Translations under genes and position numbers: made by a program
Part shown: piece after piece, positions 2,476 through 10,726 of the stretch
Layout: every line of letters starts with the position of its first letter
Numbering within the stretch: position 1 is the stretch's first letter
NCBI GenBank assembly: GCA_030917205.1
Contig: JAUPVE010000009.1
Coordinates: 1 to 12,373 of the forward strand
From: Patescibacteria group bacterium
GTDB lineage: Bacteria; Patescibacteriota; Patescibacteriia; UBA1558; GWA2-36-10
Reading direction: 5' to 3'
Length of the DNA: 12,373 nt
The notes under the pieces: model-generated
Seen by the model: only the letters and a program-made list of their open reading frames with translations
What the model was told of the DNA's origin: nothing
Databases searched by the model: none

Positions 2476-2509
2476 AAAAAAGCCACCCTATTTATCGGGG
2501 TGGTTTTTT
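2476..2509 (+). terminator. Terminator of rpsB-tsf (repeat copy 1)
   Basis: An A6 tract, then CCACCC (2483-2488) pairs with GGGTGG (2498-2503) around a 9-base loop, then T6. A G-U pair and the A/T tracts extend the stem. The stretch 2480-2515 is identical to 8679-8714 over 36 bases, including the TATA of the -10 box that follows. Confidence 0.88.
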
Positions 2510-2517
2510 GGTATAAT
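2509..2517 (+). promoter_or_regulatory. Extended -10 promoter for the four-gene accessory block
   Basis: TG-G-TATAAT: a perfect -10 at 2512-2517 with the extended TG at 2509-2510, embedded in the end of the terminator T tract. There is no recognisable -35, as often in extended -10 promoters. The predicted start is near 2524, about 23 bases before the next ATG. Confidence 0.6.
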
Positions 2518-2546: not shown

Positions 2547-4049
2547 ATGAAAATTATCCTTTCAAAACCGGAGTATAAATTGAATGCAGCTGATCTTTCT
2601 AAAGAAAAAAAATTTCTAAGAAGCCAGTTCAAAGATGGGGAATATTGGCGACCTATACGCAGAAGGGTGCCTTTTTTTATGGATGGATACCGTTATGCAG
2701 CTGCAGCAGTTAAAAAACGCTGGGGTATAGACTTTGTATTTTTTGAGGCAGGACAAGGAGTGATGCCATGTTATTTGCCTAAATTTATTAATACTGAAGG
2801 CGCAAAAATTTGGATGGCTAAAATGGATAAGGATAAAAAATTTGCCAATCAGCTAGTTAAGGAAATTATAGACATAGTAGAGGTAGAAAAAAAATTAGCA
2901 AAATCTATACCCAGAAGAGAGTTAAGTAAAAAGGAAGTTATTGGTTTTCTAATGGATCATCTTAGTTGGTGGGTAAAGTATTTTGAGATCGGTTTCCTAT
3001 GGTTTGGCGTTGAAGAAATAAAGGAAAAAATAGATAAACAAATCGCAGAACAATGGGTAGGTAGTAAAAAAGATTTAAAAATTTTTTTGGACGAGGTATA
3101 TCGTCCCATGAAATTACCACTTTCTAGTCTAGAACAAAGAGATTTGCTTAAATTATATAGTCTCAAAGGAAAAATTTTTGAGAATTCTCTAAAAAAACAT
3201 TACTTAAAATATCGTCATTTAGCATTGCATAATGTTGATGATGAATATTTTGATATTGAATATTATCGCGGTAGGTTAAAATTATTAAGGAGTAAAGGCG
3301 AATATCGTAAAATGAAAATAATGATGGATACGGCAGATAAAGAACTTTTACGTGCCAACCAACTTATAAAAAAAACAAAGTTGTCGGCCGTGTTAAAGGA
3401 AAGAATTAATTTTGTTCGCTGGTTCATGTATATTCGTACTGAGACTATTGATCATATGATGTTGGTAAATGGTGCTTATAAGTCGGTTTTTTCATCACTT
3501 TCTAATTTTTTCTCACTGCCCACCGATGTTTTACTACATATGACTTATGAGGAAATTATTTCTAGTTTAAAAAAAGGCGATTTGGTTATATCTAGGGATT
3601 TAATTTTTGATAGAGCAAAGAATGGCTATGCTTTTCTCATAACAACTCCTCCACATAAGTCATACCTGGTAGTTGGTAAAGAAGTAGAAAAATTTCATAA
3701 ATTTGTTATACCACATCAAGAGCATCAGGATATTAAAGAGTTAAAAGGGCAGACGGCATTTAAAGGTAAGATTCGCGGCGTAGCAAGGGTCATTATTGAT
3801 AGAAGAAATTCACATGAATTAAAAGATGGTGAAATACTGGTTACCACAATGACTTCGCCAGAATTTGTACCGGCAATGAAAAAAAGTGCTGGCATTATTA
3901 CTAATGAAGGTGGTGTTTTGTGTCATGCAGCAATTATGTCACGTGAATTAAGAAAGCCATGTGTCATAGGAACAAAAATAGCAACAGATATTATTAAGAC
4001 AGGCCAAATCATCACCCTAGATGCTGATAGTGGTGTAGTTACACTTTAA
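2547..4049 (+). CDS. PEP-synthase-like protein with C-terminal phosphohistidine swivel domain, no ATP-grasp
   Basis: 500 residues. Residues about 400-500 are the PEP-utilising mobile (swivel) domain: the signature T-N-E-G-G-V-L-C-H-A-A-I-M-S-R-E-L is at 452-468, with H460 as the expected phosphorylated histidine, then P-C-V-I-G-T and a beta-rich end. Residues 1-390 are mainly helical, basic and aromatic, and I recognise no named domain; by position they match the substrate-binding middle of rifampin phosphotransferase-like enzymes. The ATP-grasp part that should phosphorylate H460 is missing here but is encoded two genes downstream (4925). There is no PEP/pyruvate TIM barrel. Family knowledge: such enzymes carry phosphate from ATP on the swivel His to a substrate. 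The substrate is unknown. Such genes are often labelled phosphoenolpyruvate synthase, which this cannot be. Codons are AT-rich with many ATA and AGA. Confidence 0.8.
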   Translation: MKIILSKPEYKLNAADLSKEKKFLRSQFKDGEYWRPIRRRVPFFMDGYRYAAAAVKKRWGIDFVFFEAGQGVMPCYLPKFINTEGAKIWMAKMDKDKKFANQLVKEIIDIVEVEKKLAKSIPRRELSKKEVIGFLMDHLSWWVKYFEIGFLWFGVEEIKEKIDKQIAEQWVGSKKDLKIFLDEVYRPMKLPLSSLEQRDLLKLYSLKGKIFENSLKKHYLKYRHLALHNVDDEYFDIEYYRGRLKLLRSKGEYRKMKIMMDTADKELLRANQLIKKTKLSAVLKERINFVRWFMYIRTETIDHMMLVNGAYKSVFSSLSNFFSLPTDVLLHMTYEEIISSLKKGDLVISRDLIFDRAKNGYAFLITTPPHKSYLVVGKEVEKFHKFVIPHQEHQDIKELKGQTAFKGKIRGVARVIIDRRNSHELKDGEILVTTMTSPEFVPAMKKSAGIITNEGGVLCHAAIMSRELRKPCVIGTKIATDIIKTGQIITLDADSGVVTL

Positions 4050-4068
4050 TAATTTAATTAGAAAAATT

Positions 4069-4932
4069 ATGAGTTCAAATATGGAGTATTGGGTCACTAG
4101 ACACTCGAAATCAGGTAAGGGGGTTGAAGAATTTCCTGGTCTTTCAGAAGAGGGTGTGGATATGGCAAAAGAAAGAGCTAAATCAATTGCAGAGCTTATA
4201 AAAAATGCAGAAGATGGGTCAGTTATTTTTTATGGGGGATCTTCTAATATTATCAGGACAAAATCTACAATGGAATTATACACAAGTGAAGCAGAAAGAA
4301 TTTTAACTGAAGAGGGTGTACAGGCGCGTTTTATAAAAAAAGAGGACCTTAAAGAACGGGCTGGTAGATCGGGTTATTTGAAAACAGCCCAAGAGCTTGC
4401 GGCTACTATAGAAAGTTCTCCAGATGAAAAAGTAGTTATTGAGTTACCTTTGTTTTTAAAGGAATTTTCTATGGAGAGGTATTTATGTGAACAAGATGGT
4501 GAGACTGTGAAGCCACAGTGGCAAGCATTGCTAGATAAACATGGGAAGAACTATTCAGAAGCTATAAAAGATTGGTTTAGTGATCCCGAGCTAATGAAAA
4601 CTATTGATCCGGTAGCAATTGCTAAAGATTGCATGGTCGGCATGAAAAGGCTTGCTGATTTTTCAAGGAGATTTATAGCTGGTCGTCCAATTAAGATTGG
4701 TTTTGTTGGTCATAGTTTTCTTATAGATGCCCTTCTTACTTATATTGCAAATGGGGGACAAGTTACAACTGAAGGATTTAATAATATAGGTGGCGATGTA
4801 ATAAGTGAGACAGAGCTTTCGACTATTGAATATGATCAACAAGGTAAAATGCATTTAAAGTATAGGGGGCAAGATTTTATTTTTGAAAATGATAGTATTA
4901 CAAATAAAGAAATAACTAAAACAGATGAATAA
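4069..4932 (+). CDS. Histidine phosphatase superfamily (phosphoglycerate-mutase-like) protein
   Basis: 287 residues. The N-terminal strand carries W-V-T-R-H-S-K-S-G (8-16), where R11-H12 is the RH pair of the superfamily with H12 as the transient phosphohistidine; the usual following Gly is a Ser. R63 in S-S-N-I-I-R-T-K-S-T fits the second phosphate-pocket Arg, and H215 in V-G-H-S-F-L-I-D-A-L the second catalytic His. A long helical stretch (about 95-205) separates them, bigger than in cofactor-dependent mutases. It is probably a phosphatase, on a small molecule or phosphoprotein that I cannot name. ATG at 4069 and an in-frame ATG at 4081 are both possible; neither has a good SD. It starts 19 bases after the swivel-domain gene and overlaps the ATP-grasp gene by 8 bases, so it is probably translated together with them. 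Confidence 0.8.
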   Translation: MSSNMEYWVTRHSKSGKGVEEFPGLSEEGVDMAKERAKSIAELIKNAEDGSVIFYGGSSNIIRTKSTMELYTSEAERILTEEGVQARFIKKEDLKERAGRSGYLKTAQELAATIESSPDEKVVIELPLFLKEFSMERYLCEQDGETVKPQWQALLDKHGKNYSEAIKDWFSDPELMKTIDPVAIAKDCMVGMKRLADFSRRFIAGRPIKIGFVGHSFLIDALLTYIANGGQVTTEGFNNIGGDVISETELSTIEYDQQGKMHLKYRGQDFIFENDSITNKEITKTDE

Positions 4933-5866
4933 ATTTGTTAAAGATTTTAAGCAAGTTAAAAGTAAAGATGTGGCCTTGGTAGGCGGTAAAGGTGCTTCTT
5001 TGGGCGAGATGACAAGTATAGGTATACCAGTGCCATCTGGTTTTGTAGTCTTAGCATCAGCTTTTGATAGATTTATTGACGAAGCTAATATTCATGATGA
5101 TATTTATAATATTTTGAATAAGGTTAATCGTAAAGATATCAGTGCAGTGGAATTAGCTTCCGATAAAATTAGGCGTTTAATCAAGCAGGCAAAATTCCCA
5201 GAAGATATTAGTTCAGAAATAATATTAGAATTTACGAAACTCAAATCAAAATTAGTGGCTGTGAGAAGTTCAGCAACTGCGGAGGATTCTTCAGCAGCCT
5301 CATGGGCCGGAGAGTTAGAAAGTTATCTAAACACAACAAAGGTTGATCTTTTAGATAATGTTACAAAATGTTGGTCTTCACTTTTCACTCCTCGGGCAAT
5401 TTTTTATAGATTTGAAAAAAAATTATATAAAACTAAAATTTCTGTAGCAGTAGTTGTGCAAACCATGGTTCAATCGGAGGTTTCTGGTATATGTTTCACG
5501 GTCCATCCAGTGACCAAAGACGCTCATCAAGTAGTGGTAGAGGCCGGTTATGGTCTAGGCGAGGCTATTGTAAGTGGTAGTATAACGCCAGATAATTATG
5601 TGGTGCAAAAAGATAAGTGGGTTATATTTGATAAAAATATTAGTGAGCAAAAATTTGCTATTATAAAAGGTAAATCTGGCAATATTGAAAAAAATATTCC
5701 AATATTTAAACAAAAGAAACAAAAATTACCAGATAGTCAGATTATTTTACTCGCTCAATTATCTCAAAAACTTCACGATCATTATAGAATACCACAAGAT
5801 ATAGAGTGGGCTTTTACGAAAGGAAAATTGTATATTGTGCAATCTAGACCTATTACAACTCTTTAA
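4925..5866 (+). CDS. Stand-alone ATP-grasp (PEP/pyruvate-binding, PPDK_N-type) domain protein
   Basis: 313 residues, entirely one PPDK_N-type nucleotide-binding domain. Visible motifs in order: V-G-G-K-G-A-S-L-G-E-M (19-29), V-R-S-S-A-T-A-E-D-S (113-122), W-A-G-E-L-E-S-Y-L-N (127-136), S-L-F-T-P-R-A (152-158), V-V-Q-T-M-V-Q-S-E-V-S-G (178-188), G-Y-G-L-G-E-A-I-V-S-G (208-218), and the end D-I-E-W-A then Q-S-R-P-I-T-T-L (306-313), exactly where this domain stops in rifampin phosphotransferase and PEP synthase. The protein therefore binds ATP but lacks the swivel histidine and any PEP/pyruvate domain. Its likely partner is the swivel protein at 2547. The start lies inside the end of the phosphatase gene (ATGAATAA overlap), which points to translational coupling. 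No frameshift or remnant of the missing domains follows. Confidence 0.88.
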   Translation: MNKFVKDFKQVKSKDVALVGGKGASLGEMTSIGIPVPSGFVVLASAFDRFIDEANIHDDIYNILNKVNRKDISAVELASDKIRRLIKQAKFPEDISSEIILEFTKLKSKLVAVRSSATAEDSSAASWAGELESYLNTTKVDLLDNVTKCWSSLFTPRAIFYRFEKKLYKTKISVAVVVQTMVQSEVSGICFTVHPVTKDAHQVVVEAGYGLGEAIVSGSITPDNYVVQKDKWVIFDKNISEQKFAIIKGKSGNIEKNIPIFKQKKQKLPDSQIILLAQLSQKLHDHYRIPQDIEWAFTKGKLYIVQSRPITTL

Positions 5867-5911
5867 TTTATAAAGTACTATGGCGTTATTAATTTTTTTA
5901 AATAATTTTTT

Positions 5912-8650
5912 ATGGAAACATGGAAGCCGGAAATTAAAAGTGAAGAAGATTTACAGAAACAATTAGAAATAACCGAGGATGTTGTTGGTACCGAAATTGT
6001 TCCAAATTCTATTAGGGATGATATTTTTAATTTGTCGCTCGATGAAATTAAAGAGCGTTATCCAGAACGTTATTCGGCTTATCTTCAAATTTTACGTGCC
6101 GAAAGGAAGAGTGAGCAGATAGTAGATGATGAATTAAACAAGATGAAAGAATGGCTTGAAACTCTTAATAATCTTGACACCTATATAACTAAACATAGTG
6201 ATAATGCTAATGAAGATAGCGTGAGACTCAGAGATCGACAATTTACAGTTTTCGAAGATATTAGAAATGCTTTAGAAAAAGGGGAAAAAGAAGGTTATGT
6301 AAAATTACCAACCGGAGTGGGCAAAACAGTTTTATTTATTGAGTTAATAAAAGCCTTAGATAAAAAAACTTTGGTAGTAGTGCCCACGCGACAACTTGTT
6401 CATCAGACAGGAGATAAAATAAAACAATTTGCACCTAATTTAAAATCCGGTAAAGTATATGCTCATGAAAAAAATCTTGAGGAGAATACCACTATCATCA
6501 CTTATGATTCTTTGGTGGCTATGGTAAAATCAGGGAAAATAGTGCCAGAAAAATATGATACTATCATTCTGGATGAAGTGCATAGGTGTTTATCAGAAGC
6601 ACGTCAGGAAATAATAAATAGATTTCAAGATGTAGTAAAAATAGGTTTTACTGCTACTCCAGAATATTCAAAAGAAAAAAAAGTTTCAAATATTTTAAAA
6701 AAAGAGATACATTCTATGGGTGTTAGAGAGGCAACAGAAACGGGTTTACTCTCTTCTTTTTCGTGTATTGTTGCCAAAACTGATATTGATCTAAGTTCCG
6801 TAAAAATACTTTCCAACGGTGAGTATGACCAAGGGGAGCTTGAAAAAGTTATAAACGTTATTGGACGTAATAAGGCAGCCGTAGATATGTATGAGCAAGG
6901 GTTTAAAGGTAAAAAGGCCATAGCTTTTTGTTTAAGTATTAATCACGCTAATGATGTTGCTCAAACTTTTATTGAGCGGGGCATACAAGCGGTTGTCATC
7001 AGTGGGAGAACCCCCAGGGCTGAACAAGGGAAAATTATTCAGGATTTTGAGTCTGGGAATATAGATGTTTTGTTAACAGTAAATTTATTAACCGAGGGTT
7101 TTGATGCTCCTAATGCTAGTGTATGTTTGAATCTTGCTCCTACACATTCATTGGTTCGAGCTGAGCAAAGAGCAGGAAGAGTTTTACGTCTTGATGACAA
7201 TGATCTGCAAAAGCATGCTTTCGTGGTTGATTTTTTGGATAAAGATCAAGGTGATAAAAGATCGCCAGTAATTTTTCCAGAAATAGTTGGTGATGCCGTT
7301 GTAAGTCCTAAGAAATTTGATAACGGAAATGGTCAGGGAGGCGGTGGTGTCGGTGAACCTAATTTACCAAAGTTTAATGTAGATGGGCTCAAGATGATTG
7401 TGGATAGTGATGAAGTTTTGAGGATCTCTAAAGTTCTTGGGGAATATAGAAATGAATTTAAGCAAGAGGCAGCTTTAGGCTGGCAAACAGCTTCCTCTCT
7501 TAGATTTGCAGTGAGAAGTAGTAAAGAAACAATTAAAGAATTTGCTGAGCAATATAGAGAAAATCATCCAGAGTGGTTTGGTAATTTTTGGGTTTTTGGA
7601 CAGGAGGTAGAGCATTACCATCCGGATCTGGTAGATAAAATAATTACGAACCTTACTAAAATAGAAGCGCTTGAGGGATGGGAAACGGCTAGTAAACTTA
7701 GCCAGCGTTTGCAGCGAGATTTTTATTTTATTAAAAAATTAGCTGAGCAATACAGAGAAAGTCACCCAGAATGGTTTGTTAATTTTTTGGCTGGCAAAAA
7801 GGAGAGGGAACATTATCATCCGGAATTAATTGAATTGATAAAGAAAAATCTTTTACAGTTAGAAGCGCCCGTTGGTTGGGCTACATCAGAAAAGATTGCT
7901 AGCGAAATTAAGAAAAGCCCTGTTACAATAAAAAAAGCAGCTGAACAATACAGAGAAAGTCACCCAGAGTGGTTTGGTAATTTTTGGGCAGGTAAGCAAA
8001 ATACGGAGTACTATCATCCGGAATTAATTGAAATCATAAGTAAAAATCTATTGCGAATGGAGGCACCGCTCGGTTGGTTTACAGTAGGGAATATTAGTGG
8101 TCAAATCAAAAGTGATGGTAAAACAATAAAAAAGTTAGCTGAACAATACAGAGAAAGTCACCCAGAGTGGTTTGGTAATTTTTGGGCTGTTAAGATGAAT
8201 GGGGAATTTTATCATCCCGATTTAGTTGAAATAATAAAAAACGAGTTAGCTACACCAGAGGCACCGCTCGGTTGGTTTACGGCTAGAAAAATAAGTGAAC
8301 AAATTAAAAGTACTTCCCAGACAATAAAAAAAATAGCTGAACAATACAGAGAAAGTCATCCAGAGTGGTTTGGTATTTTTAAAGCTGGCCCAAAGAAGCC
8401 AGAGTATTATCATCCAAATTTAATTGAAATAATAAAAAGAGAGTTAATTAGACCTGAGGCCCCAGATGGGTGGAAAACAGCAACGTGGCTTAAAAGTAGT
8501 ATAAAAGTCAATGTAGTAACAATAAAAAAAATAGCTGAACAATACAGAGAAAGTCATCCAGAGTGGTTTGGTACTTTTTGGGCTGCTACGATGGATGCGG
8601 AGTTTTATCATCCTGATTTAGTTGAGGAAATTAAGAGGCATTTTGGGTAG
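5912..8650 (+). CDS. SF2 (DEAD/DEAH-type) helicase with six C-terminal 66-residue repeats
   Basis: 912 residues. Residues 1-105 are charged and helical, unrecognised. The helicase core has R-D-R-Q (107-110, Q-motif-like), Walker A L-P-T-G-V-G-K-T (132-139), Walker B L-D-E-V-H (220-224), motif III T-A-T-P (247-250), E-G-F-D (395-398) and motif VI Q-R-A-G-R-V-L-R (419-426), resembling ResIII/RadD-type DNA translocases. A Gly-rich linker (471-481) leads to the repeats, G523 to the end, each with G-W-x-T-A, an HTH-like stretch and AEQYRESHPEWF. No nuclease or methylase domain is visible, so restriction function is not supported. It follows the ATP-grasp gene by 45 bases and precedes a terminator, so it likely closes the operon. 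DNA binding by the repeats is inference. Confidence 0.88.
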   Translation: METWKPEIKSEEDLQKQLEITEDVVGTEIVPNSIRDDIFNLSLDEIKERYPERYSAYLQILRAERKSEQIVDDELNKMKEWLETLNNLDTYITKHSDNANEDSVRLRDRQFTVFEDIRNALEKGEKEGYVKLPTGVGKTVLFIELIKALDKKTLVVVPTRQLVHQTGDKIKQFAPNLKSGKVYAHEKNLEENTTIITYDSLVAMVKSGKIVPEKYDTIILDEVHRCLSEARQEIINRFQDVVKIGFTATPEYSKEKKVSNILKKEIHSMGVREATETGLLSSFSCIVAKTDIDLSSVKILSNGEYDQGELEKVINVIGRNKAAVDMYEQGFKGKKAIAFCLSINHANDVAQTFIERGIQAVVISGRTPRAEQGKIIQDFESGNIDVLLTVNLLTEGFDAPNASVCLNLAPTHSLVRAEQRAGRVLRLDDNDLQKHAFVVDFLDKDQGDKRSPVIFPEIVGDAVVSPKKFDNGNGQGGGGVGEPNLPKFNVDGLKMIVDSDEVLRISKVLGEYRNEFKQEAALGWQTASSLRFAVRSSKETIKEFAEQYRENHPEWFGNFWVFGQEVEHYHPDLVDKIITNLTKIEALEGWETASKLSQRLQRDFYFIKKLAEQYRESHPEWFVNFLAGKKEREHYHPELIELIKKNLLQLEAPVGWATSEKIASEIKKSPVTIKKAAEQYRESHPEWFGNFWAGKQNTEYYHPELIEIISKNLLRMEAPLGWFTVGNISGQIKSDGKTIKKLAEQYRESHPEWFGNFWAVKMNGEFYHPDLVEIIKNELATPEAPLGWFTARKISEQIKSTSQTIKKIAEQYRESHPEWFGIFKAGPKKPEYYHPNLIEIIKRELIRPEAPDGWKTATWLKSSIKVNVVTIKKIAEQYRESHPEWFGTFWAATMDAEFYHPDLVEEIKRHFG
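7478..8647 (+). repeat. Six tandem 198-base coding repeats in the helicase gene
   Basis: The motif AEQYRE(S/N)HPEWF begins at codons 545, 611, 677, 743, 809 and 875 (bases 7544, 7742, 7940, 8138, 8336, 8534), and the G-W that opens each unit at 523, 589, 655, 721, 787 and 853: an exact 66-residue period with no indel. Within the unit a block of about 49 bases starting at each of these positions is nearly invariant; copies 3 and 4 are identical across it. The rest of each unit differs substantially. The four residues just before T-I-K-K (or F-I-K-K) vary: SSKE, RDFY, KSPV, SDGK, STSQ, VNVV. The last unit is 60 residues long. Confidence 0.97.
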
Positions 8651-8678: not shown

Positions 8679-8708
8679 AAGCCACCCTATTTATCGGGGT
8701 GGTTTTTT
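8679..8708 (+). terminator. Terminator of the helicase operon (repeat copy 2)
   Basis: CCACCC and GGGTGG form the same hairpin as at 2476-2509, with the same loop and T6 tail. Bases 8679-8714 match 2480-2515 without a difference. It lies about 30 bases after the helicase stop. There is no long A tract upstream (only AAACAA), so read-through control from the opposite strand is less likely than for copy 3. Confidence 0.88.
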
Positions 8709-8716
8709 GGTATACT
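8708..8716 (+). promoter_or_regulatory. Extended -10 promoter for the DKNYY gene
   Basis: TG-G-TATACT directly after the terminator T tract, with -10 at 8711-8716, in the same position relative to the hairpin as the promoter at 2509-2517. No -35 is evident. The ATG is 28 bases after the -10. Confidence 0.55.
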
Positions 8717-8744: not shown

Positions 8745-9965
8745 ATGAAAAAACAAAAAGTTCAATTTAGTCTAAAAAGAAGCTTAATACTCATTACGTT
8801 TCTTGGTATCTTTTTAATTGTTTTCATGAGTATAGCAAACTATAAAAATTTTAATAATTATAATTATTTATCTGGTAAACAGCAGAATAATAATGTTAAT
8901 ACGGATGTTCTAACTAATTTAAATGTTAATACTCCAGTCAGCACCACTACTAATAATAGCGAAAAGAATAAAAGTGATGAATGGTTTTTGTATACGAATA
9001 TAAGATATGGTTTGCAGTTTGCATACCCGGGTTACTGGACGACCTCTGGTAGTGCTGATACAGGTGAGTATCAACTTTTAGACGACGTAGAATCGGGTGG
9101 CGCTTCTGGTGGCGTTTTTATTAAACCCCTTGTTAAGCAATCGGTCGATGCCCTACTCGTTGATTTACAAAAGAGAGCTGAACAATCGCGGAAATATTAT
9201 CAAGAGCATCCAGATGGACCAGCAACTAAATACAGTGAACCGGAATTAATTACTATAGCTGGCGAAACAGCAATAAAACAGATTTATCAACCTTATGAAA
9301 TTACACCAGCGGGTGTGATGTATTTTTTCCCCCAGAAAGGTGTTGAAATCGATTTGACTAATCTATATAGCTCGGGCGATGATGCTGAAAAATATACTAA
9401 TCTTGTTCACGGTAAAGTATTAGCCTCTTTAAAATTTTTAGATAAATTAACTTATTTAGATTATGGCTATTACACAGATGGGAAGGATATTTATTATAAT
9501 CATTTAGAATTTATTAAAAATATTTCAAATAAAGAATTAGAAACCTTTGATCATTTTGCCGAAAAAAATAGGAATTATTTTGATGATAGTTCAGCATTAA
9601 AAGTAGAGGGTGTAGATCCGGGTAGTTTTGTGACTCTTCATGAAATATGTGGTATGGGTGGATGTCAGGGCGTAGCAAAGGATAAACATTTTGTATATTC
9701 TGGTGGCACTATAGATACTAGGCTTGATGATCGATTAGTGGACGTTAGTACATTTGTTTATTTAAAATATAATTTTTTTAAGGATAAAAATATTTTATAC
9801 TATTATGGTTATGGGTGGGGCAGGGTAGATTATGTTGATTTAGATACTTTTGAATTTATAAATCCCATGTATAGTAAAGATAAAAATAATGTTTATCAAT
9901 TTATGGACGGTTTTAATATAGTAAAAGGAGCCGATCCAAAAACATTTAAAGTGCCAGTATATTAA
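8745..9965 (+). CDS. Membrane-anchored protein with DKNYY-type C-terminal repeats
   Basis: 406 residues. A basic N-terminus (MKKQKVQFSLKR) is followed by one hydrophobic segment at about 12-30, most likely an uncleaved signal anchor with the rest outside the cytoplasm. An Asn/Thr-rich linker (about 36-76) precedes a globular part (about 80-232) beginning W-F-L-Y-T-N and including F-A-Y-P-G-Y-W, similar in style to PsbP-like lipoprotein domains. From about 240 come repeats of the DKNYY type: T-D-G-K-D-I-Y-Y, A-E-K-N-R-N-Y-F, A-K-D-K-H-F-V-Y, F-K-D-K-N-I-L-Y-Y and S-K-D-K-N-N-V-Y, with interleaved G-A-D-P-x-T-F. Cys302 and Cys307 could form a disulfide. The function of DKNYY proteins is unknown. 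It sits alone between two copies of the same terminator type. Confidence 0.78.
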   Translation: MKKQKVQFSLKRSLILITFLGIFLIVFMSIANYKNFNNYNYLSGKQQNNNVNTDVLTNLNVNTPVSTTTNNSEKNKSDEWFLYTNIRYGLQFAYPGYWTTSGSADTGEYQLLDDVESGGASGGVFIKPLVKQSVDALLVDLQKRAEQSRKYYQEHPDGPATKYSEPELITIAGETAIKQIYQPYEITPAGVMYFFPQKGVEIDLTNLYSSGDDAEKYTNLVHGKVLASLKFLDKLTYLDYGYYTDGKDIYYNHLEFIKNISNKELETFDHFAEKNRNYFDDSSALKVEGVDPGSFVTLHEICGMGGCQGVAKDKHFVYSGGTIDTRLDDRLVDVSTFVYLKYNFFKDKNILYYYGYGWGRVDYVDLDTFEFINPMYSKDKNNVYQFMDGFNIVKGADPKTFKVPVY

Positions 9966-9970
9966 ATTAA

Positions 9971-10000
9971 AAGCCACCCTGTTTATTGGGGTGGTTTTTT
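9971..10000. terminator. Bidirectional terminator between convergent genes (repeat copy 3)
   Basis: CCACCC (9974-9979) pairs with GGGTGG (9989-9994), then T6. It differs from copies 1 and 2 only at two loop bases (A to G, C to T). On the minus strand the stem is followed by CTTTTAATTT, so it can also end the methyltransferase transcript whose stop is 10 bases away. Confidence 0.85.
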
Positions 10001-10010
10001 GTTTGATATT

Positions 10011-10595
10011 TTATTTTTTGATTAAAAATGTTACATAATCTTCTCTAAATCCGATATAGTCATGATGGTAAATTTCAACATTAGAAAAAATATTGTTTAA
10101 TAATTTTATAGTTTCCTCAAAGTCTACAGCAATATTTATTTTGTCCTCCTCGGTATAAGAAGTACCCTGGTGTGTGACGGGCGTTATTAATATAAATATA
10201 GAATCATCATGTAAACATTGTGCTACATTTTTTAAAAAAAATTCTTTATTATCAATAAAAGTATAAACCCAACTGCATAAAAAAATATCAGCCTCTAAAT
10301 TAATTTTTTCGCTACTTAAATCGGATTTAATCAATTTTATGTTTGTTGTTTTATTTTCTTCTATTTTTTGTTGTACTTTATTTAAAGCAACTTCCGAAAA
10401 ATCTAAACCAGTGACATCAAAGCCTAATTTGGAAAATTGGAACAATGTTTGGGCTGTGCCACAACCAAAATCAACCATTTTTTGAGGAGATGGGTTAGTA
10501 TCTTTTTTAATTTTTGTTAATAAGAGATTTAAAAAATGTTCGTTTAGTGGTTTGAATTGCGGATTATTGGAAAATATTTTGTCCCATTTATTCAT
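10011..10595 (-). CDS. Class I SAM-dependent methyltransferase
   Basis: 194 residues. Motif I V-D-F-G-C-G-T-A (41-48) is the S-adenosylmethionine-binding glycine loop; D65 in G-L-D-F-S (63-67) is the acidic residue at the end of strand 2 that binds the ribose hydroxyls; S-D-L (91-93) and the strand I-F-L-C-S-W-V (104-110) complete the Rossmann core. It resembles the small UbiE/TehB-like methyltransferase_11/25 group, which methylates small molecules; the substrate cannot be read from the sequence. The length is typical for a one-domain enzyme. It has its own promoter, shares terminator copy 3 with the gene facing it, and is the only minus-strand gene inside the accessory stretch. Codons are very AT-rich. 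Confidence 0.88.
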   Translation of the reverse strand: MNKWDKIFSNNPQFKPLNEHFLNLLLTKIKKDTNPSPQKMVDFGCGTAQTLFQFSKLGFDVTGLDFSEVALNKVQQKIEENKTTNIKLIKSDLSSEKINLEADIFLCSWVYTFIDNKEFFLKNVAQCLHDDSIFILITPVTHQGTSYTEEDKINIAVDFEETIKLLNNIFSNVEIYHHDYIGFREDYVTFLIKK

Positions 10596-10675: not shown

Positions 10676-10690
10676 AGGGTGGTTTTTTTG
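10676..10690 (+). other. Orphan right arm of the repeated terminator
   Basis: AGGGTGG followed by T7-G matches the right arm and tail of the terminators at 2498, 8697 and 9989, but no matching CCACCC left arm precedes it. A minor 5-bp pairing with ACCCT at 10694-10698 is possible. It is placed upstream of the ricT promoter, as the intact copies are placed upstream of promoters. Confidence 0.4.
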
Positions 10691-10697
10691 TTTACCC

Positions 10698-10726
10698 TTG
10701 TCATTATCGCTAGTATTTGCCATACT
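10698..10726 (+). promoter_or_regulatory. Promoter of the ricT-like gene
   Basis: TTGTCA (10698-10703), a 17-base spacer, CATACT (10721-10726), with TG at 10718-10719 making an extended -10. The predicted start is near 10733, only about 14 bases before the ATG at 10747, so the mRNA leader is very short and has no SD. Confidence 0.65.

What the first reader, a model, noticed from the sequence alone, without database searches (positions are those of the whole stretch)
2547..8650. Candidate new system: split ATP-to-histidine phosphotransferase, histidine phosphatase and repeat-bearing helicase in one operon
Seen directly: four same-strand genes with gaps of 19, -8 and 45 bases, one promoter-like element before them and a terminator after. 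Known: PPDK_N ATP-grasp domains phosphorylate a swivel-domain histidine, and histidine phosphatases remove phosphate. Inference: the first three gene products could run a phosphorylation/dephosphorylation cycle on one substrate, and the helicase with DNA-binding-like repeats could be the sensor or target, for example in defence or repair. I know of no described system with this set. Caution: co-transcription of the helicase rests only on spacing and strand.
Basis: partly seen in the sequence, partly recalled or inferred. Interest (0 to 1): 0.8.

Follow-up and report, generated by a model that had tools for sequence, protein, structure and literature searches.

The report
Split small-molecule kinase with phosphatase, inserted
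A tiny uncultured bacterium carries, in an inserted block of genes, a two-part enzyme that probably passes phosphate from ATP through a histidine onto a small molecule, next to a phosphatase; the neighbouring helicase looks like a passenger, and relatives of the two-part enzyme form large arrays with many acceptor parts that I found no description of.

Summary
The four ORFs, strand and gaps (19, -8, 45) are as described. Genes 1 and 3 are the two halves of a rifampin-phosphotransferase-type dikinase: gene 3 the ATP-grasp half, gene 1 the substrate-binding domain plus swivel histidine (H460). Two-component enzymes of this kind are known (PpsAB, CreHI, HpeHI); hpeHI shares an operon with a phosphatase. 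So the set has precedent and its substrate is probably a small molecule. Gene 2 has the histidine-phosphatase fold and motifs; that family is named for its own catalytic histidine, so a cycle on the swivel histidine does not follow. The three-gene unit recurs: gene-2 relatives lie beside a swivel gene in 7 of 8 other genomes. The helicase link does not recur in what I could search: its relatives in 2 of 284 other class genomes lie away from swivel genes. The four genes sit between identical 36-bp terminator copies, in an ~8.2-kb insert between tsf and ricT that the same-genus genome lacks. The surprise lies outside the window: some Patescibacteria and DPANN archaea carry tandem swivel arrays (up to 12 PF00391 copies per genome), usually near one free ATP-grasp gene. 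New variant of a known kind.

The parts
2480..2515 (+). terminator copy T1 (behind tsf), first of two identical 36-bp copies
   Evidence: core occurs 3x in the assembly, only here
2512..2517 (+). TATAAT, possible -10 element directly after T1 (no clear -35)
   Evidence: read directly
2547..4049 (+). gene 1: substrate-binding domain (about 1-390) + C-terminal swivel phosphohistidine domain (about 397-500), catalytic His460; acceptor half of a two-component dikinase
4069..4932 (+). gene 2: histidine-phosphatase-superfamily protein (TRH at 10-12, R63/R65, GHS at 214-216)
4925..5866 (+). gene 3: free-standing PPDK_N ATP-grasp, charger half of the dikinase
   Evidence: PF01326, 322 bits; aligns to RPH 2-316; groups with free/array ATP-grasps, not PpsA
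5912..8650 (+). gene 4: SF2 (RadD/ResIII-like) helicase with six 66-aa HPEWF repeats; probable passenger of the same insert
   Evidence: relatives not found near swivel genes
8679..8714 (+). terminator copy T2, identical over 36 bp to T1
8745..9965 (+). second module of the insert: DKNYY-family protein
   Evidence: PF13644
9971..10000 (+). terminator copy T3 (2 mismatches to the 30-bp core)
10011..10595 (-). third module: methyltransferase-fold protein
   Evidence: PF13847 and others
10677..10690 (+). 3' half of what looks (by eye) like a fourth, decayed terminator copy, followed by the ricT promoter-like site 10698-10726
   Evidence: a similar stretch lies between tsf and ricT in the same-genus genome (L143)

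Best explanation
Genes 1 and 3 encode a two-component small-molecule dikinase of the rifampin-phosphotransferase / HpeHI kind. Gene 3 binds ATP; the swivel domain of gene 1 docks on it and His460 takes the beta-phosphate (ATP to AMP + Pi); the domain then swings back and hands the phosphate to a hydroxyl of a small molecule bound in the N-terminal domain of gene 1. Gene 2, a histidine-phosphatase-superfamily phosphomonoesterase, later removes phosphate from the product or from a product of a further step, as HpeD does in the Hpe pathway. The helicase is an independent passenger of the same inserted block. Shown by computation: ORFs, domains, folds, catalytic His, recurrence of the three-gene unit, the extra block between tsf and ricT. 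Inferred: the reaction, the substrate class, the phosphatase's target, the helicase's independence.
Against: No substrate or activity is known. RPH Glu667 aligns with T298 in gene 1, and the R297 column is R in only 22 of 60 array paralogues (Q in 23), so the acceptor site is not that of RPH; RPH Thr136 is S133 in gene 3. Gene 2 has no Pfam match, a middling model (pLDDT 79) and Foldseek TM scores near 0.4; fold rows tied with the best include PGAM5, which acts on proteins (recalled). No enzyme recognised as acting on a phosphorylated intermediate lies in the block; kinase and phosphatase alone on one substrate would be futile. Gene-2 relatives in G152 (two copies) have no swivel gene in the stretch held, on short contigs.
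Confidence: 0.7

Rival explanations
1. Gene 2 acts like SixA: it removes phosphate from the swivel histidine of gene 1, so the three genes form a regulated histidine phosphorylation/dephosphorylation switch on one protein.
For: Gene 2 has the superfamily fold to which SixA belongs (recalled); rows tied with the best include the protein phosphatase PGAM5 (its role recalled); gene-2 relatives stay next to swivel genes in 7 of 8 other genomes; no intermediate enzyme is recognised in the block.
Against: Most superfamily members act on small phosphate esters (recalled). Most array loci held (e.g. L017, L019, L020, L021, L024, L028) show no gene-2 match at E <= 1e-4, though 3 of 76 array neighbours match His_Phos_1. 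Gene 1 carries its own substrate-binding domain, so the histidine has another way to discharge.
Confidence: 0.15
2. One reading: a four-gene defence or repair system in which the helicase is sensor or target of the phosphorylation cycle.
For: The four genes lie between two identical 36-bp terminator copies with no + strand terminator- or promoter-like match in the gene 3-gene 4 gap.
Against: Genes 1-3 match no PADLOC model and the helicase only parts of helicase-bearing models. Its relatives in G408 and G564 (2 of 284 other class genomes; that in G564 with a stop inside) are not near swivel genes. Of 119 contig lengths listed for helicase relatives and 117 for gene-1 relatives one is shared (2,794 nt), too short for both genes. 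No locus fetched outside the own genome shows a gene-4 match at E <= 1e-4.
Confidence: 0.05
3. The phosphate acceptor is a macromolecule (protein, nucleic acid or cell-surface polymer) and gene 1 is a polymer kinase rather than a small-molecule kinase.
For: Sugar-nucleotide enzymes and glycosyltransferases occur among 76 ORFs near the arrays (Epimerase 4, NTP_transferase 2, Glycos_transf_1 2); plant glucan water dikinases use related chemistry on starch (recalled).
Against: The N-terminal domain matches RPH's small-molecule-binding domain; the two-component relatives named in PMC12167813 phosphorylate small phenols. Neighbour counts are small and were not compared with a background.
Confidence: 0.1

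Closest known systems
HpeHI (Rhodococcus), CreHI (Corynebacterium glutamicum), PpsAB phenylphosphate synthase (Thauera): two-component dikinases
   Same: One polypeptide with ATP-grasp, one with substrate-binding domain plus C-terminal swivel His; hpeHI sits in an operon with a phosphatase (PMC12167813 abstract, sections 8 and 10; PMC9618137 passages)
   Different: Gene 1 is 500 aa against 71 kDa for HpeH; gene 2 is of the histidine-phosphatase superfamily, HpeD is NagD-like; no carboxylase in the block; host is a reduced Patescibacterium; relatives form multi-acceptor arrays
Rifampin phosphotransferase (RPH)
   Same: Same three domains; equivalents of catalytic His825 and Arg666
   Different: RPH is one chain; Glu667 is replaced by Thr; no evidence that rifamycins are the substrate
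PEP synthase (PpsA)
   Same: ATP-grasp and swivel domains
   Different: No PEP/pyruvate barrel; gene 3 groups apart from PpsA; the genome has its own PpsA-like protein
Histidine phosphatase superfamily (RosC, PhoE/YhfR, SixA)
   Same: Fold and RH/GH motifs of gene 2
   Different: Narrow family without Pfam model; 26 hits in the protein collection, the own one included

Membership tests
two-component small-molecule dikinase (PpsAB/CreHI/HpeHI) | ATP-grasp (PPDK_N) as a separate polypeptide | tested here: met
   (gene 3, 313 aa)
two-component small-molecule dikinase (PpsAB/CreHI/HpeHI) | partner with RPH-like substrate-binding domain plus C-terminal swivel domain | tested here: met
two-component small-molecule dikinase (PpsAB/CreHI/HpeHI) | T/SXXGGXXXH motif with catalytic His; no regulatory Thr two residues before it | tested here: met
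   T452-N-E-G-G-V-L-C-H460, L458 at the Thr place; motif from PMC12167813
two-component small-molecule dikinase (PpsAB/CreHI/HpeHI) | no PEP/pyruvate-binding barrel | tested here: met
   no such family listed for genes 1 and 3
two-component small-molecule dikinase (PpsAB/CreHI/HpeHI) | phosphorylates a small molecule with ATP to AMP + Pi | not testable with these tools
   needs biochemistry
rifampin phosphotransferase | single chain with ATP-grasp, substrate and swivel domains | tested here: not met
   two ORFs separated by gene 2
rifampin phosphotransferase | Arg666-Glu667 pair needed for the second phosphotransfer | tested here: not met
   R297 present, Glu replaced by T298
PEP synthase | PEP/pyruvate-binding barrel after the swivel domain | tested here: not met
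   gene 1 ends at the swivel domain
histidine phosphatase superfamily | RH motif, second Arg, GH motif, superfamily fold | tested here: met
   T10-R11-H12 and H215 invariant, R63/R65 nearly invariant in 17 sequences; fold; motif set recalled
histidine phosphatase superfamily | phosphatase activity | not testable with these tools
   needs biochemistry
RadD helicase | NCBIfam RadD equivalog cut-off (720 bits) | tested here: not met
   105 bits; SF2 helicase core present
known anti-phage defence system | PADLOC models for the component genes | tested here: inconclusive
   none for genes 1-3; only partial matches to helicase-bearing models for gene 4

The most novel reading that the evidence does not exclude
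The window holds a one-acceptor member of a wider design, for which I found no description, in Patescibacteria and DPANN archaea: one shared ATP-grasp 'charger' phosphorylates the swivel histidine of many different acceptor proteins (or of many modules of one giant protein), each with its own substrate pocket, so that one ATP-using subunit multiplexes a battery of small-molecule kinases; the unit moves as a terminator-bounded cassette.
Probability: 0.45. Interest if true: 0.78.

Novelty: new variant of a known kind. Interest (0 to 1): 0.52.

Why it matters
Patescibacteria and DPANN archaea have very small genomes, yet some devote 10-20 kb to tandem acceptor halves of dikinases. If one charger feeds many substrate-specific acceptors, this is a new way to build a set of small-molecule kinases cheaply, and it points to an unknown phosphorylated-metabolite chemistry in probably host-dependent microbes. 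The one-acceptor unit with its phosphatase in this window is small enough to test in vitro.

Tried and rejected
Defence system: no PADLOC model for genes 1-3. PEP synthase fragment or pseudogene: rejected; gene 3 falls in a clade of 12 free and 6 array-fused ATP-grasps (support 0.888, no PpsA inside), while 29 of 30 PpsA group elsewhere (0.854) together with one free one of 38% identity; the deepest node of the free group has support 0.218 only (midpoint root, labels set by my own ORF rule). Helicase as core component: not supported; helicase neighbours in G564 include AbiEii and GatB, in G408 PurK, with nothing in common among the ten ORFs scanned. A genome-wide standard terminator as the meaning of the repeat: rejected, the core occurs only in this window, in an assembly 68.8% complete. 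A close gene-1 orthologue in the family or class that would test the helicase link: none in 20 other family genomes at E <= 1e-50 or 379 other class genomes at E <= 1e-60. Neighbour families of arrays are too few to name a pathway. Contig lengths are circumstantial: only the longest contig of each listed cluster is given. Literature: searches listed no paper whose title or shown abstract describes tandem swivel arrays or this three-gene unit; only 12 of 41 and 12 of 230 papers were listed. I read of PMC12167813 the abstract and sections 8 and 10, of PMC4844700 and PMC9618137 passages; of the rest listings only. Complex prediction of genes 1 and 3 was not possible with the tools.

Full report
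What is there. Gene 1 (2547-4049) ends in a PF00391 swivel domain, gene 3 (4925-5866) is a PPDK_N ATP-grasp, gene 4 (5912-8650) an SF2 helicase; gene 2 (4069-4932) has no Pfam match. The helicase carries six HPEWF motifs at a period of exactly 66 aa. The genome (667,507 bases, 108 contigs, 68.8% complete) shows one other PPDK_N and one other PF00391 match, both in one 798-aa ORF, a PEP-synthase-like protein, so genes 1 and 3 are a second, split enzyme.

Is the three-gene unit real? Gene-2 relatives were found in 8 of 378 other phylum genomes, at 27-41% identity; in 7 of the 8 a swivel gene lies within 1.1 kb. Two of the 7 (G312, G371) are of one genus and give the same match; G152 is the exception, on short contigs. 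G291 repeats the order gene 1, gene 2, gene 3, the last 61% identical; G027 has gene 3, gene 1, gene 2. Ten of 25 longest-contig lengths of gene-2 clusters outside the window reappear among 117 listed for gene-1 relatives; shifting the lengths by 1-20 bases either way gives 0-2 matches.

Is the helicase part of it? Relatives at E <= 1e-80 occur in 2 of 284 other class genomes, neither near a swivel gene in 17 kb, with unrelated neighbours. The only contig length shared between 119 helicase and 117 gene-1 entries, 2,794 nt, cannot hold both genes. One thing speaks for joint arrival: the block is bounded by identical terminators.

Insertion. In the 10 relatives fetched (of 13 with a tsf match) S2-Tsf is followed by RicT, directly in three, including the same-genus G618 with a spacer of 89 bp, and after pyrH in seven (G230 also has one further 188-aa ORF there). 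In the window 8.2 kb lies between tsf and ricT. G618 has, by eye, one related terminator in the spacer; the window has copies at 2480, 8679 (identical over 36 bp) and 9971 (2 mismatches), plus what looks like a half copy near 10677 before the ricT promoter-like site. So the insert reads T1-[genes 1-4]-T2-[DKNYY]-T3-[methyltransferase, reverse]-half T. Close gene-1 relatives are absent at E <= 1e-50 from 20 other genomes of the family and at E <= 1e-60 from 379 other genomes of the class. This looks like an acquired, modular island; how it was inserted is not known.

The wider family. Gene-1 relatives at E <= 1e-30 occur in 36 of 379 phylum genomes, the own one included. Many lie in tandem arrays of ~470-500-aa ORFs, often overlapping by a base: L017 11 swivel ORFs, L019 10, L020, L021 and L028 9 each. 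Named sources include Nealsonbacteria, Taylorbacteria, Uhrbacteria, Woesearchaeota and other DPANN archaea. Of 192 phylum genomes 126 have PF00391 (PpsA included); 18 have 4 or more copies, 10 have 7 or more, the maximum is 12. In those 10 the PPDK_N search counts 1-4 matches, PpsA and fragments included, and by my reading of the capped listings a free-standing PPDK_N of 312-398 aa (open frame) lies on a contig that bears array genes in 8 of 10 (not G058, G100). In Woesearchaeota L024 one 3,760-aa ORF holds one PPDK_N and eight swivel domains; L027 has a 2,936-aa ORF with eight. Within nine loci with three or more members the swivel halves are on average 49-58% identical, the N-terminal halves only 15-21%; His460 is kept in 60 of 60, R297 in only 22 of 60. 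Gene 3 of the window falls in a clade of free-standing and array-fused ATP-grasps (support 0.888) with no PpsA inside; median identity to gene 3 is 59% for 13 free ones (lowest 38%, which falls with PpsA), 40% for 30 PpsA. The natural reading is one charger, many acceptors with different substrates; it is inferred, not shown.

Verdict. The more surprising observation is the multi-acceptor arrays, for which five literature searches, two of them with capped listings, showed no description.

Noticed in passing
window 2480-2515, 8679-8714, 9971-10000, about 10677-10690: Copies of the tsf terminator bound each module of an 8.2-kb insert between tsf and ricT; the core occurs nowhere else in the assembly. 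Looks like cassette-wise insertion at a terminator; no integrase family was listed for the ten window ORFs scanned.
   Followed up: partly
L024:473-11752: A single 3,760-aa ORF in a Woesearchaeota MAG with one PPDK_N and eight PF00391 swivel domains.
   Followed up: partly
L017, L019, L020, L021, L028: Tandem arrays of 9-11 swivel-protein ORFs in Patescibacteria, DPANN and one Planctomycetota-labelled MAG.
   Followed up: partly
L155:2761-7596: A 1,612-aa alpha-2-macroglobulin-like ORF follows the gene1-gene2-gene3 unit in G291.
   Followed up: no
L158:4478-5137: A methyltransferase gene follows gene 2's relative in G027; the window insert also carries a methyltransferase (10011-10595, reverse).
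   Followed up: no
L148:8768-9331: The tsf-ricT interval of G230 holds an extra 188-aa ORF besides pyrH, without an NCBIfam match, so this interval is variable.
   Followed up: partly
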